Below are positions 6,701 through 62,100 of a DNA stretch of 64,000 nucleotides, in pieces (the first letter of the stretch is position 1; the number at the start of each line of letters is the position of its first letter). The notes below the pieces were generated by a model, which was given only the letters and a program-made list of their open reading frames with translations, did no database searches and was not told the origin of the DNA. The stretch is from Arabidopsis thaliana (taxonomy: Eukaryota; Streptophyta; Magnoliopsida; Brassicales; Brassicaceae): assembly GCF_000001735.4 (NCBI RefSeq), contig NC_003076.8, positions 8,618,001 through 8,682,000 of the forward strand. The letters are read 5' to 3'. The translations under genes were made by a program, and so were the position numbers.

Positions 6701-9700
6701 AAGTTGGAGCATGCACATCGAGAATGCCCAACTTGCGCAGAAAGTAACGAACTTCCTTTTCACCCAAAGCCTTAGTTAGAATATCTGCAAGCTGCTTGTG
6801 AGAGGGAACAAACGAAGTCGCAATTATACCATCAAGAATAGCATCGCGGATAAAATGACAATCCACCTCAACATGTTTGGTGCGCTCATGCTGAACTGGA
6901 TTGACACTGAGAGCAATTGCAGATTTACTGTCAGAGAAGATGCGCATAGCCTGAACGTGAGAGACACCAAGATCATAAAGCACCCGCTTGAGCCACATGA
7001 GTTCTTGAGTAAGGAATGCCATAGCTCTATATTCAGCCTCCGCGGAAGAGCGACTGACAGTGGGCTGCTTTTTCGTTTTCCAAGATATGGGAGTATCACC
7101 AAGCTGTACAAAGTATCCTGTGAGAGAGCGACGAGTGAGAGGGCAAGCAGCATAGTCACTATCGCACCAACCATTAATCTGCAGAGTAGAGGTGCTAGAG
7201 AGTAAAATCCCTTGTCCTGGGTTAGATTTCAAATAGCGAACAACACGAATGGCGGCGTTCCAATGGTCCTGACGCGGATTCTGCATAAACTGTGCAAGAG
7301 TGTGAACAGAATATGATAGCTCAGGACGTGTTACAGCCAAGTAAATGAGTCTCCCAACTAGACGACGATACCGTGAAGAGTCTGAAAGCAGAGGAGATGT
7401 AGACAACGAGAGCTTATGATTCTGTTCAAGCGGAAACGCAGACGGCCTAGCCCCCAAAAGTCCCATTTCAGAAATAATATCAAGAACATACATCCTTTGG
7501 GATAGGGAGAATCCTTGAGCATTGCGGTTCACTTCAATGCGAAGAAAATATTTGAGCAAGCCAAGGTCTTTCATGTGAAAACATGATTCTAGATAGGATT
7601 TAAATTGAGCAACAACATCAGGGCAGCTACCCGAAATGATCAGGTCAACGACATATACGAGGACATGAACAAAGACACCATCATTGTTGTAACTGAACAG
7701 AGAGTAATCCGACAAAGATTGTGTGAACCCATATTATTTTAAAGCAGAAGAGAGCTTGGAAAACCAACACCTTGGAGCTTGTTTCAAACCATACAGAGAT
7801 TTATGAAGACGACATACCTTGCTAGGATCATCACATTGAAATCCCTGAGGCAATTTCATATACACTTCCTCCTTTAAGTCACCGTGAAGGAAAGCGTTAT
7901 GCACATCCATTTGATGTACATGCCAATCACGGGCCGCAGCCACTCCCAAAAACAAACGCACCGTGCTCATTTTTGCAACCGGAGCAAAAGTTTCATCATA
8001 ATCCACGCCTTCTTTTTGACAATTACCCAAGACTACCAAACGAGCTTTATATCGCTCTATCGCCCCATCCGATCGATACTTGATTTTGTATACCCATTTG
8101 TTGCCAAGAGCCCGCTTTCCTGGAGGCAAATTTACAATCGAGAAGGTTTGATTAACTCGCAGAGATTCCATCTCAGCAGACATAGCCTCTCTCCAAGCTT
8201 TGTCAACCATAGCCTCGTTGTAAGTTGTTGGTTCCATTCCAGCAGTAACAGCTGCGAGAAAAGCCTTGTGCGACGAAGTGAATCGATGGCAATCCACGTA
8301 TTTCTCAATTGGATACAGAGAGGAGGAAGAAGCCTCAGGGGAAATCGATTCAACACTCACAGTATTGGTGACAAAATTCTTCAACTTCATCGGTTTTTGT
8401 GTTTGGCGAGAACTACGTCTAAGTTGTATTGGCGCCAGTGTTGTAGATGACAGTGGAAGATCTGCTGTCTGTACGGTGCTTGATACTAAAAAAGGATCGA
8501 GAGAGGAGAGAGAGACAAACTCACTTGGACTTGAAGATTCTTGATTGATTTCAGGTATTATTGGGCCAGTTGCAACATTCGGCCCAACTGTAGCTTCACC
8601 AATATTTCGTCCAATAATAGTTCTTGGCCCAATAGCTTCTTCAATAAAAGGTGGCCCAACACAATCCACCAATACACGTTCATCTTCCTCATTGCACGAC
8701 ATCTTGGAGTATGGAAACTCTGTTTCCTGGAAAATCACATCTCTAGACACGAAAATTTTTTGTTCTTCTAAATCAAACAGCCTCCACCCTTTTTGTCCAT
8801 GTGGATACCCAACAAATACACATCGTCTTGATCGTGCCGCAAACTTATCTCCTTTGTGATTTTGGTTATGTGCATAACACAAGGAACCAAATACACGAAG
8901 ATGAGAGTATTTCGGAGCCGTTTTATATAACATCTCATATGGAGATTTACCTTGAAGAAGCATCGAGGGAGTGCGGTTGATAAGGTAAGCCGCAGATAAG
9001 ATACACTCTCCCCAGAACTGAATTGGCAAATACGATTGAAATCGCAAGGTCTCGCGATATTCAAAATATGTCGATGCTTCCTCTCAACCCTTCCATTTTG
9101 ATGCGGAGTCCCAACACATGAAGTTTCATGAGCAATGCCTTTGTGTAGAAAGTACTCACGCATACATAGAAACTCAGTCCCATTATCACTTCTTACTGTT
9201 TTGATCTCAGTGTCAAATTGTCGTTCAACTAAAGCAATGAAATCTTTCAAATGTTTCTGAGTTTCACTTTTATCAGTCATCAAATAAACCCACACACCAC
9301 GAGAATAATCGTCAACGATTGTCAAGAAATATCGAGCACCAGAGTAAGAAGGTGTTCGATAAGGCCCCCACACATCACAATGAATTAGCTGAAAACTATC
9401 CATACTTCTATTATCACTTAGAGGAAAAGTATCACGGGTTTGCTTAGCTCGCATACAAGTATCACATACATTCTCCAAAATCTCTTTACCACTAGACAAA
9501 AGTTCTCTAGGCAACAAATTAACTATCTTGTCTGATGCGTGTCCCAAACGCCTATGCCATAGATCAAAAGGGGCCTTCACACTCGTGTGCACAGCAGCAG
9601 CATTCTCCATTCCCCGAAAACAAAAACTTCCATTCTCTCTTTTACCAATTCCAGTCACCATCCTCGTAGTGCGGTCCTGTATCACAAGGAAGTGATCAGC

Positions 9701-56557: not shown

Positions 56558-57303
56558 TTTTATATTATTATAGTTCAAGATGTAATAATTTGGAAATATC
56601 TTAAAGTTAAATAAACAATCACTTGAGCTGATCCCGGTACACTTATTGTCACCACATTCGAACTCGTGTTCACGATCCTTTAGCAAGCGTTTGAGCTCAC
56701 CTTTGACATATGCGCGTTTAATAACAAACACACGAATATTCAAACGAACATATATCACCTTATCTTGAAAAAGTTGGCATTATTCGTTTGTGGGACATCT
56801 TTAGTACTCTCTCTATTTTTAATTAAGTGTAGTTTGAAGATATATTTTTTTTCCGTGTTGTTTTCACTTTTCAATGCTAAAATTAAATGTATTTTATAGT
56901 TTTTAATTAATCATATTTTTTTATTGGTTAGATTAGTTGTAATTAATGATGTTTTTATAGAAAAGAAATAAATTAAATAAGATTTGTATATTTTCTTAAT
57001 TTATGTGCAAAAACCTTAAACTACAAATATTAAGAAACAAAGAAAGTATGATTTATTGTAAAATAAGCTTATCATGAAGATGTTCCGTGCAAAACACATC
57101 CTTGAAATAGTAACAGTGAGATAAGATATAAAACATCTTATTAATAAAATTTTGTGATTGATTGAATTTGACTCCCCTGTAAAAAACAACAACTGATTTT
57201 AAAAACCATACATAGAAAACTATTTTATAGAACAACAATAAATACTAGTTTTTCACTATATAAGGACTTGATTGGTTCTTGAAAATTATATGTATTGATT
57301 ATT
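56558..57303. other. Spacer 3' of CYP71B13 with a flank-module copy
   Basis: Holds the 3' UTR of CYP71B13 and the third copy of the P450-flank module (about 56640-57110), which is interrupted by a 240-bp Stowaway-like MITE. No gene. Confidence 0.6.
56807..57046. mobile_element. Stowaway-like MITE
   Basis: 240 bp bounded by TA on both sides (56805-56806, 57047-57048). The left terminus CTCTCTCTATTTTTAATTAAG and the inverse of the right terminus CTTTCTTTGTTTCTTAATATT are diverged inverted repeats close to the CTCCCTCCGTTTC ends of Stowaway/mariner MITEs. Paralogous modules near 43915 and 52530 lack the insertion. Confidence 0.8.
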
Positions 57304-57448
57304 GGGAGATTTGCAAAACTAGCCTTTTTTTACTACCCTTTTGCAACAATACCCTTTCATGTTGTCCATTTTTAAAAATATCTCTCCCCTTGAACAAAAT
57401 GACCAAATTACCCTCATCTAATAAAAACATGTAATTGGAAACTGAAAT

Positions 57449-57562
57449 TTTCCCGCCAATTTTTTGGCGCCAAAATATTTTTTTTCCCGCCAAAAAAAAG
57501 TTTCCGCCAAACTTTTTTCCAACCAAAAAAAAAAATTCCCGCCAACAAAAAAATTTCCCGCC
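57449..57562 (+). promoter_or_regulatory. Left cluster of E2F-type sites
   Basis: TTTCCCGCC occurs at 57449-57457, 57483-57491 and 57554-57562, with a near match (ATTCCCGCC) at 57535-57543. All match the E2F/DP consensus TTTSSCGC, allowing one mismatch in the last. Confidence 0.65.
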
Positions 57563-58181
57563 AAATTTTTTTTTCGTAAAAAATTTTTCCTCAGCCAAAA
57601 AAAATATTTTAAAAATCCTTGTAAATATTTTTTAGCGCCAAATAGATTTACAAGGGATTTTAAAAGGATTTTAAAAGATTTACAAGAGATTTTTAAAAAG
57701 TTTTAAAAAATTTACAAGAGATTTTAAAAGAGTTTTAAAAGATTTACAAGAGATTTTAAAAGAGTTTTAAAAGATTTACAAGTAATTTTAAAAGGTTTTA
57801 AAATCCCTTGTAAATCTTTCAAAACACTTTTAAACCCTTTAAAAATCTTTACAAATCCTATGTAAATATTTTAAAACCCTTTAAAATCCCTTGTAAATAT
57901 TGTAAAACCCTTTTAAAATCCCTTGTAAATATTTTAAAATCCTTTTAAAACAATTTTAAACCCTTTAAAAATCTTTAAAAGACCTTTGTAAATCTTTTAA
58001 ATCCCTTTAAAATCTCTTGTAAATCTTTTAAAACCCTTTTAAAAATCCCTTGTAAATCTTTTAAAAACCTTTTAAAATCCCTTGTAAATTACCCTTTTAA
58101 AATCCCTTGTAAATCTTATAAAACCCCTTTAAATTGCCTTGTAAATCTTTTAAAACTCTTTTAAAATTCCTTGTAAATCTA

Positions 58182-58310
58182 TTTCCCGCCAAAAAAAAAA
58201 ATTGACGGGAAAAATATTTTTGAAAACAAAATTTGGCGGGAAATGTTTTTCAAAAATTTTTGGTGGGAATTTTTTTCGAAAAGGTTTGGCGGGAAAATTT
58301 TGGCGGGAAA
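58182..58310 (-). promoter_or_regulatory. Right cluster of E2F-type sites
   Basis: TTTCCCGCC at 58182-58190 and its inverse GGCGGGAAA at 58235-58243, 58288-58296 and 58302-58310. These mirror the left cluster, as expected for an inverted-repeat element. Confidence 0.65.
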
Positions 58311-58500
58311 TTTATTTTAGAATATTTTAGGCGAAAAAATATTAATATTTCATTTTGTTAACCTAAAACAATTTCCAAATAAGGGTAAAATGGTAATTAA
58401 AAATTTAAAGAGAATATAAATAAAAATGGATAAAACAAAAGGGTAGAGTTGAAAAGGGGCATCATGAAAAGGGCATTTGAAAGAATTTTTCTTGATTATT

Positions 58501-59116: not shown

Positions 59117-62100
59117 ATGGATCCAGAGCAAATCAACGAGTTCGTCGTGGGCTACTTGAAGAAGAAAGGATTCAGTAGCGCTGCTAAAGACCTTGAATCT
59201 TATCATCACCAGAACAATAATGGTAGCTCCTTCACTTCTGTCGATTATCATAACGATCCTGAGCTCACGAAGCTCATTCGCTCCTTTTCTCAGTAATCTC
59301 TCTCCCTATCTCTCTCTCTCGTTTCAATTCTTAATGCGAATTGTGTTTTGAATTTTTGGGAAAGTTTTAGTGTCTTTTGTGAATTTTGAAAACCGTAAGG
59401 AAAAATTATGTAAGCTCCAACGTTTTTGAGAATCTAAAAATGAATATAATTCACTTTCTGGGTGAAGTTTATGTGAATATTTCTATCAGTTTATCTGTCA
59501 AATTTAAGATTTTGATGACATCTCAGTGGCAAGAAATTAGGTTTTTTTGTATGGCTTATGTAGAGAGAGCTAATGGTAATGAAATGTCTGTTCTTTTGTT
59601 TGCAGACAAGAAGATGATCCAACTCGGTACCGTGAAGGTTACAGCAAACTAAGGTCATGGGCGTATAATTCTCTGGATTTATATAAGGTGGGGATTTTTT
59701 TTTGTGTATCCCTTGGCTGTTTTGGGTAGAGACAGGCTTAATTGAACTGACGAGATGATTCTAATTTTGTAGCATGAATTGCTTCGAGTGATGTATCCTG
59801 TGTTTATTCATTGTTACATGGATCTGGTGGGGAAAGGGCACACTCAAGAAGGTACTTGTCAATATAGCAAATTAGATGTACTGAGTATTTTTTTTACCTT
59901 CGGTATAAGATTTTTGGAAACAGTGACTTATGCTACTGTGGGAAATAATACGTCTCTTGTATTCCAGCTAGAGCCTTCTTTAACAGCTTCCGCAAAGATC
60001 ATGAGATGGTACACTTACGGGATCTTCAGAAGCTTGAAGGCGTGCTTTCTCCATCTCATCTAGAGGTTTATGATAAACCTTATATGGTCATATAATATTG
60101 ATAATGGATTTTTTTTTTTTTTTTTTTGGTTATTATCTTTCTTATGATCTTGGTTCTTATCAGGAGATGGAGTTTGCTCGTTCTCTTAGAAAAAGCAAGG
60201 TTAACATCAAGTTTTGTCAGGTAGACTTGAGTGAAAATTGACTAGTAGCTGTAATAGGCAACTGCTTCGAGGTTTCTGGTCTGATTAACTGAATTCCGTG
60301 ACTGCAGACCTCTAATATGCTTACTGAATGTTGCAGTATTCATATGAGCTGTTACTTCAGTATCTACATAGTACAGTATCGACTTTAATGCTTGGTATTA
60401 TTAACGAGCACATCAATTTCCAAGGTAAATGTGTTTCTTTCTCTTATATATGCGATAGCTTGTAGCAGTTTTTTGAGTAGAAAATTGAATCAATTGGTCA
60501 TGGATAATTTGTTGCAGTCTACTCGGGACAGCCTACTTCCTCATCCGATGACATAGAAGCTGTCACCATTGTCGGGAGTTTTCAGGACACTGCTAATCAC
60601 ATTAATCAAAAAGAAATACAGTGGGGAGTACGTATTTCCCCTAAAGTTTCTTTTCTCTTCTATTTTTCCAGAGTTATAACATGTTGATGCCTCATCCCAG
60701 GGATGATAACATATTTGCGTAGTTAATAGCTACATATGCATTTTTCTTTTACAGTTGCTTGAAGATTCACTAGAAGATCGCCTTGAGAAGACAGGAGGTC
60801 TGCTGTCTGATTCTGAGAAGGGACAAGGAGAAAGTAAAGACGGGGATGCAGATGATAGTAAGGTGATACATAGCTTCAACTTAGTCAATAATTTCTGAAC
60901 TGAAATCCCGTTTTTACTCGTCAATTGATTCTGTGTACAGAAAAGATCCACTGAAATTGGAAAGCAAGGCTCTTCCTTAAAAAAGTTGAAGAAGGACAAA
61001 GCGGGTAATGCAACAGCAAAAGTTGCACGTCTGGAGACCATTACGGTGTCACCGGCGCCGCGTGTAAAACCAGAACTTGCCTTGCCAGTAATGTACTTTC
61101 GAATCCCTTACCCATTTTTTGTGTTGGGATTTGATTAAAAAGGAATGAACATGTGATATCTATGGGTGATGCATGATTGTTTAGGAGAAATGAACATAGT
61201 CTTTGTATTTGTCAAAGACTCAACCTCCTTTAACATAAATCAATTTTGCTCCATCTCCTTGTTTTCTCTGTCAGGTCCACAGATGTAGAGCAATCCATCC
61301 TTGAAGACCTTAGAAACCGTGTGCAGTTGAGTAGTGTTGCAATGCCATCAGTCAGCTTTTATACATTTGTGAATACTCATAACGGGTAATGTCCACCTCT
61401 CCTCCTAATTTTAACTACTTATTTGCAACCTTGTTACTCACTCTTTTATTCTCCCCCAGGTTAAACTGTTCATCTATATCTCATGATGGATCTCTGGTTG
61501 CTGGTGGGTTCTCAGATTCTTCAATAAAGGTATGTTATTCTCGGATGGTTGGATACATTTCCCTTTTTTTGTTTTCTTCCTCTCTTAAATGATGCCAAGT
61601 GACAATTATGGTGTTCAGGTCTGGGACATGGCTAAGATAGGACAAGCTGGCAGTGGTATGTTAATTCTCTGAAAAATTGTATTGACATCCACGTTTAAGA
61701 ATGATATTTATCTCATACGTTTCGCTTGTCATTTTTGTTGATTTCTCATAATGATTGTTTTTGTTTCCATGAGAGTTATAGACACTAAGCTGTCTGGTTC
61801 CAGGTGCTTTGCAGGCTGAAAATGATTCAAGTGATCAAAGCATAGGACCAAATGGCAGAAGAAGTTATACATTATTACTGGGTCATTCAGGGCCAGTTTA
61901 CTCAGCCACTTTCAGTCCCCCTGGAGATTTTGTTCTATCTTCTTCAGCAGATACAACAAGTATGTATCTGTCCATCACTTTACAAATCCATACACTGGCT
62001 CATTAGTTCAGACTTTTTTAGTTACCAACCCTGTATTCATAAGTGCAGTACGACTGTGGAGCACAAAACTAAATGCTAATCTCGTGTGCTACAAGGGTCA

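What the first reader, a model, noticed from the sequence alone, without database searches (positions are those of the whole stretch)
57304..58491. Foldback Mutator-like element carrying seven perfect E2F-type sites near TAF5
The sequence shows a 9-bp target duplication, long inverted ends, mirrored clusters of TTTCCCGCC (seven exact copies plus near matches) and a central inverted array of about 20-bp TTTTAAAATCCCTTGTAAAT-type units. E2F/DP factors bind TTTSSCGC, and amplification of E2F sites by small transposons has been reported in Brassica species. This copy ends about 625 bp before the TAF5 start codon. It could act as an E2F sink, as a cell-cycle-linked enhancer of TAF5 or CYP71B13, or as a source of hairpin small RNAs.
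Basis: partly seen in the sequence, partly recalled or inferred. Interest (0 to 1): 0.75.

Follow-up and report, generated by a model that had tools for sequence, protein, structure and literature searches.

The report
Non-autonomous jumping gene bearing cell-cycle switches
This is a non-coding plant jumping gene whose ends carry many DNA sites of the kind bound by the cell-cycle regulator E2F (already known for such elements) and whose middle is a repeated DNA word shared with a second family of jumping genes, which suggests the word may be a docking site used by the jumping genes themselves.

Summary
In detail: a 1,188-bp element (57304-58491) with a perfect 9-bp target duplication, imperfect ~290-bp inverted ends, and all seven TTTCCCGCC of the window. 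The central array is a ~32-bp tandem unit in two opposed blocks, built on TTTTAAAATCCCTTGTAAAT.

It belongs to a Mutator-like family (48 copies recovered with both ends; about 149 left ends counted). One coding member is an 8,755-bp element with a MuDR/MULE transposase and, convergently, DUF1985 and Ulp1-protease reading frames. E2F-type sites lie in both its ends, so they belong to the element's own inverted ends, plausibly its promoters. The family consensus keeps them, but I found no extra purifying selection.

E2F-site amplification by Brassicaceae transposons, with E2Fa binding, is already reported, so that half is not new. The less expected half is the array: its motif also sits in 84-bp tandem repeats 1.2-1.6 kb upstream of the transposase at 10 loci of a second MULE lineage. 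Such MULEs commonly carry DUF1985, a domain of VANC anti-silencing proteins, whose known targets are arrays of this sort. I propose, unproven, that the array is a VANC/KIU-type target. Nothing here shows an effect on TAF5.

The parts
57295..57303 (.). left copy of the 9-bp target-site duplication, TTGATTATT
57304..57443 (+). left terminal region of the inverted repeat; over both terminal regions the family is 0.963 identical at A/T and 0.859 at G/C columns
57449..57562 (+). left E2F-type cluster: TTTCCCGCC at 57449, 57483, 57554; TTCCCGCC also at 57536
57646..57781 (-). central array, block 1: 5 minus-strand TTGTAAAT at 32-bp steps
57808..58178 (+). central array, block 2: 10 plus-strand TTGTAAAT, mostly at 31-33 bp steps or about double, motif TTTTAAAATCCCTTGTAAAT
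58182..58310 (.). right E2F-type cluster: TTTCCCGCC + at 58182; - at 58235, 58288, 58302
58332..58491 (-). right terminal region of the inverted repeat
58492..58500 (.). right copy of the target-site duplication, TTGATTATT

Best explanation
A non-autonomous, foldback derivative of a Mutator-like DNA transposon. Its ends are those of a coding element (C5:10197293-10206047) that has a MuDR/MULE transposase at one side and, running towards it, DUF1985 and Ulp1-protease reading frames at the other. SHOWN: common ends, 9-bp target duplications, E2F-type sites in both ends of the small elements and of the coding one, a central motif array of variable length. INFERRED: (1) the E2F clusters are promoter elements of the coding element, tying its transcription to dividing cells; the small elements carry them along with the ends they need for mobilisation. 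(2) The TTTTAAAA-N(4-5)-TTGTAAAY array is a protein-docking array of the element's own system, most likely the target of a DUF1985/Ulp1 (VANC/KIU-type) anti-silencing protein, which would let non-coding copies be kept free of methylation in trans. My odds: identity as a MULE derivative about 0.95; E2F clusters as element promoter parts about 0.5; array as VANC/KIU-type target about 0.35.
For: Family and TSDs: 48 copies with both ends (the coding one included), 24 with 9/9 and 31 with at least 8/9 TSD in exact register. Coding member: same two ends, TSD 8/9, PF03108, PF10551, PF02902, PF09331. Its E2F-type sites (TTSSCGS) lie at 147-290 and 8470-8565 of 8,755 bp, its array at 8061-8458. Array word AAAATCCCTTGTAAAT: 720 in the genome, 0 for the reversed pattern; the 48 copies hold 213. 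Second lineage: same motif in 84-bp tandem units; an array 1,233-1,611 bp upstream on the same strand at 10 of 124 MULE loci; displaced arrays give mean 0.18, maximum 3 in 2,000 trials. L071 has E2F-type family ends around 84-bp-type units. VANC proteins have DUF1985, and their targets are short motifs in tandem repeats of noncoding regions, including upstream of the transposase gene (PMC5735166).
Against: No binding, methylation or expression data could be examined. DUF1985 does not single out the array-bearing loci: 8 of 10 have an opposite-strand match within 6 kb, but so have 17 of 51 other high-ranking MULE loci (37 of 51 within 14 kb, capped list). The known VANC words are not enriched: YAGTATTAY 0 and AGTTGTMC 2 in 62,424 bp, against 12 and 2 in one shuffle. 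In the foldback copies the array runs in both orientations, whereas VANC21 sites are described as arrayed in one. The 84-bp and 32-bp arrays are partly alignable (65-76% over 114-357 bp), so plain common descent can explain the shared word. In the coding element only 1 of its 4 exact TTTCCCGCC is at the transposase side. The nearest other coding copy (99% in transposase, C5:18477481) does not continue into the array- and E2F-bearing end at the expected place. E2F sites are about 1.4 and 1.6 kb from the DUF1985 and PF03108 reading frames; no transcript start is known. No excess conservation of E2F columns.
Confidence: 0.5

Rival explanations
1. The central array is a transposase-binding subterminal repeat array (as in CACTA or hAT elements, recalled), not an anti-silencing target.
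For: Arrays lie near the ends and at a nearly fixed distance upstream of the transposase gene in the second lineage; most non-coding copies keep them (47 of 48 copies have TTGTAAAT).
Against: A 441-bp copy with a perfect TSD has no TTGTAAAT (L054), though it may have lost the array after insertion; the number varies from 0 to 23 per copy. MULE transposases are generally thought to bind the terminal inverted repeat (recalled).
Confidence: 0.28
2. E2F clusters and array are neutral passengers; the element is just an old palindromic MITE, perhaps silenced through hairpin small RNAs.
For: E2F columns change on internal and end branches like the rest (internal/terminal 0.32 against 0.24 and 0.25; Fisher p 0.10 and 0.21); a median copy keeps 4 exact TTTCCCGCC; very strong fold-back.
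Against: The CpG inside the E2F sites is not lost faster than other G/C positions (0.871 identical; terminal G/C 0.859, subterminal G/C 0.817, other CpG 0.846), and the array word persists in a second MULE lineage in a different repeat unit. Both are mild.
Confidence: 0.32
3. One reading: this copy is an E2F sink or a cell-cycle enhancer of TAF5 (or CYP71B13).
For: 625 bp upstream of the ATG; reviews report E2Fa binding to TE-borne sites and that some lie close to genes in A. thaliana.
Against: No data on this copy. It is on the 3' side of the P450 gene. It holds 6 of the 1,561 TTTCCCGCCAAA of the genome, so alone it can be only a very small sink.
Confidence: 0.12

Closest known systems
E2F-site-amplifying MITEs of Brassicaceae (Henaff et al. 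2014, Plant J 77:852; known to me only through passages of reviews PMC12595863, PMC4110626, PMC13317346)
   Same: Small non-autonomous transposon with many E2F sites; one review names MULE MITEs among the carriers and reports E2Fa binding.
   Different: The primary paper could not be read, so I cannot say whether this family is named there. The passages I saw do not mention a coding member with E2F sites in both ends, nor a second motif array.
VANDAL / Kaonashi (KIU) Mutator-like elements with VANC anti-silencing genes (Hosaka et al. 2017 PMC5735166; reviews PMC13317346, PMC6117577; passages and one section read)
   Same: Partner element encodes a MULE transposase, DUF1985 and an Ulp1 C48 protease; noncoding tandem arrays of a short motif near the transposase gene.
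   Different: Those MULEs are described as non-TIR; this family has ~290-bp inverted ends. The motif differs from those of VANC21 and VANC6. Anti-silencing was not tested.
Maize MuDR (recalled, no paper read)
   Same: Two convergent genes with each promoter near an inverted end, 9-bp TSD.
   Different: The second gene is DUF1985/Ulp1 here; E2F clusters and array.
Elements with 27/28-bp E2F-site arrays in the same genome (L065-L070)
   Same: Dense sites, 6 to 19 TTCCCGCC per 2.8-3.5-kb locus.
   Different: No similarity to this element at E 1e-5; no AAAATCCCTTGTAAAT; L068 has an 8-bp flanking duplication TGATTTAT, as in hAT elements (read by eye).

Membership tests
Mutator-like element (MULE), non-autonomous | 9-bp target-site duplication | tested here: met
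   9/9 in this copy; 24 of 48 copies 9/9 and 31 of 48 at least 8/9 in exact register
Mutator-like element (MULE), non-autonomous | long terminal inverted repeats | tested here: met
   ~290-bp arms, score 203 against at most 66 in 50 mononucleotide shuffles
Mutator-like element (MULE), non-autonomous | coding relative with MuDR/MULE transposase sharing the ends | tested here: met
   C5:10197293-10206047, PF03108 37.3 bits, PF10551 84.3 bits, in two reading frames
Mutator-like element (MULE), non-autonomous | mobilised by that transposase | not testable with these tools
   needs a transposition assay
E2F-site-bearing MITE (Henaff 2014 kind) | E2F consensus sites conserved through the family | tested here: met
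   46 of 48 copies have at least one TTTCCCGCC; majority sequence of 47 keeps 9 TTCCCGCC
E2F-site-bearing MITE (Henaff 2014 kind) | E2Fa binds in vivo | not testable with these tools
   reported for TE-borne sites in general, not for this copy
E2F-site-bearing MITE (Henaff 2014 kind) | being one of the families named in that paper | not tested
   paper not held
VANDAL/KIU MULE with VANC targets | partner encodes DUF1985 with Ulp1 | tested here: met
   PF09331 121.5 bits, PF02902 124 bits in separate reading frames on one strand; that they form one gene is inferred
VANDAL/KIU MULE with VANC targets | non-TIR ends | tested here: not met
   inverted ends present, also in the coding element (score 178); so not filed as a VANDAL
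VANDAL/KIU MULE with VANC targets | known VANC21 or VANC6 motif | tested here: not met
   YAGTATTAY 0, AGTTGTMC 2 in 62,424 bp, against 12 and 2 in one mononucleotide shuffle
VANDAL/KIU MULE with VANC targets | short motif densely arrayed in one orientation in noncoding tandem repeats | tested here: inconclusive
   dense and tandem; 8 of 9 TTGTAAAT of the right-end array of the coding element in one orientation, both orientations in the foldback copies
VANDAL/KIU MULE with VANC targets | sequence-specific loss of methylation on VANC expression | not testable with these tools
   needs transgenic bisulfite data

The most novel reading that the evidence does not exclude
The central array is the target of a DUF1985/Ulp1 (KIU-type) anti-silencing protein with a bipartite recognition word, TTTTAAAA-N(4-5)-TTGTAAAY, shared by two MULE lineages in different repeat units. 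Together with E2F sites in the ends, the family would combine a cell-cycle switch with a docking array for escape from silencing, and pass both to its non-coding copies.
Probability: 0.28. Interest if true: 0.72.

Novelty: new variant of a known kind. Interest (0 to 1): 0.48.

Why it matters
If the array is an anti-silencing target, it gives a defined, testable DNA word and a named candidate protein for a KIU-type system, and shows how non-coding transposons can keep both a cell-cycle promoter module and a silencing-escape module. The E2F half alone adds a possible reason (promoters in the ends of a coding MULE) to an already reported amplification.

Tried and rejected
L071 (4.36 kb between family ends) was first taken for a coding copy; it has no reading frame over 87 aa and is a composite of family pieces without clear TSDs (best 7/9, out of register). 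The PF10551 list was used only to spot the MULE domain at C5:10200562 between two family ends. Selection on E2F columns was tested on a tree of the terminal columns and found no support. VANC21 and VANC6 words were tested and are not enriched. E2F-type sites in ends of the second lineage: none in the two stretches I hold, L044:1-583 and L038:1-587. Paper searches for the MuDR TIR promoter (listing only), for E2F with MULE and terminal inverted repeat (listing only) and for E2F with VANDAL (passages of one hit) showed nothing that joins E2F sites to a coding MULE or VANDAL. Sasaki et al. 2022, the paper on KIU targets, is not held, so the array word may already be described there. No Repbase or TAIR family name could be assigned.

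Counting choices: the 48 copies come from the best-scoring hits that I fetched and in which a left and a right end were found on one strand; L024, L039, L044, L050, L062, L063 lack an end and were left out, as were L071 and L052 (same place as L031, other ends unpaired); L001-L010 repeat L011-L020. L036 was merged into the coding element. The arm alignment used 47 (the 441-bp L054 left out). The 124 transposase loci and 40 array clusters were typed from the 142 and 98 rows, merging pieces of one place and leaving out small leftover pieces; 19 of the 40 array clusters could be placed beside a listed transposase, 21 could not. No tree of the transposases was built. The 51 comparison loci are my choice of high-ranking rows.

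Full report
What is there. The element runs from 57304 to 58491 between two perfect copies of TTGATTATT. All seven TTTCCCGCC of the window lie in it (0 of 100 shuffles reach seven). The two arms pair over about 290 bp, E2F sites against E2F sites, and the strand folds far more strongly than 20 shuffles. The word AAAATCCCTTGTAAAT occurs 7 times in the element and nowhere else in the window.

Family. The window is G000 C5:8618001-8682000 of a 119.7-Mb genome; that it is Arabidopsis thaliana is my recall from the gene names and genome size. Searches with the whole element and with each end score only the best 40 of 363, 191 and 171 candidates. A 21-bp word of the left end is found 149 times with up to 3 mismatches, against 10 for the reversed word. 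I recovered 48 copies with both ends, the coding one included; 24 have a 9/9 and 31 at least an 8/9 duplication in exact register, 17 do not. They hold 187 TTTCCCGCC, median 4 (0 to 9), 46 of 48 with at least one. The majority sequence of 47 arms keeps nine TTCCCGCC in mirrored order.

Are the E2F sites kept by selection? Their columns are about as conserved as other G/C columns: E2F CpG 0.871, E2F other G/C 0.860, terminal G/C 0.859, subterminal G/C 0.817, other CpG 0.846. On a tree of terminal columns the ratio of internal to end-branch changes is 0.32 for E2F G/C columns, 0.24 terminal, 0.25 subterminal (p 0.10 and 0.21). So they are family features and not fast-lost, but I have no evidence of extra constraint. 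The alignment of repeated motifs in A/T-rich spacers is gappy and may favour matching motifs, which limits this test.

Coding member. C5:10197293-10206047 has both family ends, a TSD of 8/9, and E2F-type sites and TTGTAAAT copies in both ends; of its four exact TTTCCCGCC three are at the DUF1985 side and one at the transposase side. Between the ends lie, on one strand, reading frames with PF03108 and PF10551, and on the other, towards them, DUF1985 and Ulp1 C48. E2F sites are about 1.4 and 1.6 kb before the DUF1985 and PF03108 frames; promoter function is inferred. A 99% identical transposase at C5:18477481 does not lead into the same array-bearing end (L073), so the coding version of that end rests on one copy.

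Second lineage. The array word led to other places: 84-bp tandem units at C1:11887 kb, C2:567 kb and C1:18600 kb. A search with that repeat (40 of 186 candidates scored) set against the transposase list shows an array 1,233-1,611 bp upstream, same strand, at 10 of 124 MULE loci; with arrays displaced at random the mean is 0.18 and the maximum 3 in 2,000 trials. The ten match the coding element's transposase at 40-43% identity; nine of them are among the ten rows that align over residues 2-303 at 42-43%, the tenth such row (C2:5972866) shows an array only on its other side. Seven of the ten have a second array 3-12 kb beyond the transposase. Eight of the ten have an opposite-strand DUF1985 match 3.4-5.7 kb further on; C2:6574854 and C2:3017194 show none in the capped list. 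But 37 of 51 other high-ranking MULE loci also have one within 14 kb, 17 within 6 kb, so DUF1985 is usual in these MULEs and not a mark of the array. The two ends taken as this lineage's are similar to the family's inverted ends (60 of 77 and 82 of 103 aligned positions identical) but have no E2F-type site; that they belong to it is inferred from their place next to its arrays. L071 carries 84-bp-type units between ends of the E2F family, and L053b has the 84-bp-type word too. So ends and array types seem to have been exchanged while the motif stayed: family units, 84-bp units and L071 units share TTTTAAAA at a fixed distance before TTGTAAA (TTGTAAA was the search word, so only the flanking conservation informs). 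The two array types are partly alignable, so common descent is possible.

Reading. DUF1985 is a domain of VANC proteins, which bind short motifs arrayed in tandem repeats of noncoding parts of their elements, including upstream of the transposase gene, and induce loss of methylation (PMC5735166, passages and one section; PMC10398659, passages). KIU elements have the Ulp1 domain in that gene (PMC13317346, passages; PMC6117577, passage). Different VANC families use different words, so a MULE group with DUF1985 and its own arrayed word fits. I therefore propose the array as a VANC/KIU-type target, at about 0.35. A transposase-binding array and a neutral passenger are the rivals.

What is known. 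Reviews state that about 85% of E2F sites in some Brassicaceae lie in transposons, mainly hAT, PIF/Harbinger and MULE MITEs and Helitrons, and that E2Fa binds them (PMC12595863, PMC4110626, passages). In this genome TTTCCCGCCAAA occurs 1,561 times, reversed 3; the 48 copies hold 137 of them. The first 100 listed sites form 15 clusters: 12 sites in 4 clusters lie in places of this family (one of the four, C1:4111 kb with 4 sites, is only presumed from its array words), six clusters that I read are 27/28-bp arrays without similarity to this element, at least one hAT-like by its flanks, and five were not read. The E2F half of the finding is thus a member of a reported phenomenon.

Effect on neighbours. 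The element lies 625 bp before the ATG at 59117 and downstream of the P450 gene. No binding, expression or methylation data were available; the enhancer and sink ideas remain untested.

Noticed in passing
L065-L070 (between C1:54800 and C1:8269000): 27/28-bp tandem arrays with 6-19 TTCCCGCC each, in at least two groups by mutual similarity; L068 is flanked by an 8-bp duplication TGATTTAT as expected of hAT elements.
   Followed up: partly
L038:587-601 and L044:583-600: Two family copies stand within about 20 bp of what looks like the end of a second-lineage MULE, as if MULE ends were preferred insertion sites.
   Followed up: no
L073 (C5:18480200-18481700): A 99% identical transposase copy departs from the coding element at its position 8036, just before the array begins; truncated or a different end.
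   Followed up: partly
C1:2792194, C1:7360930, C2:12569922, C3:9727651: Four MULE loci with identical scores, each with an identical-scoring DUF1985 match about 7 kb away: looks like a recently active family.
   Followed up: no
L071: E2F-type family ends enclose 84-bp-type array units: apparent exchange of array types between families.
   Followed up: partly
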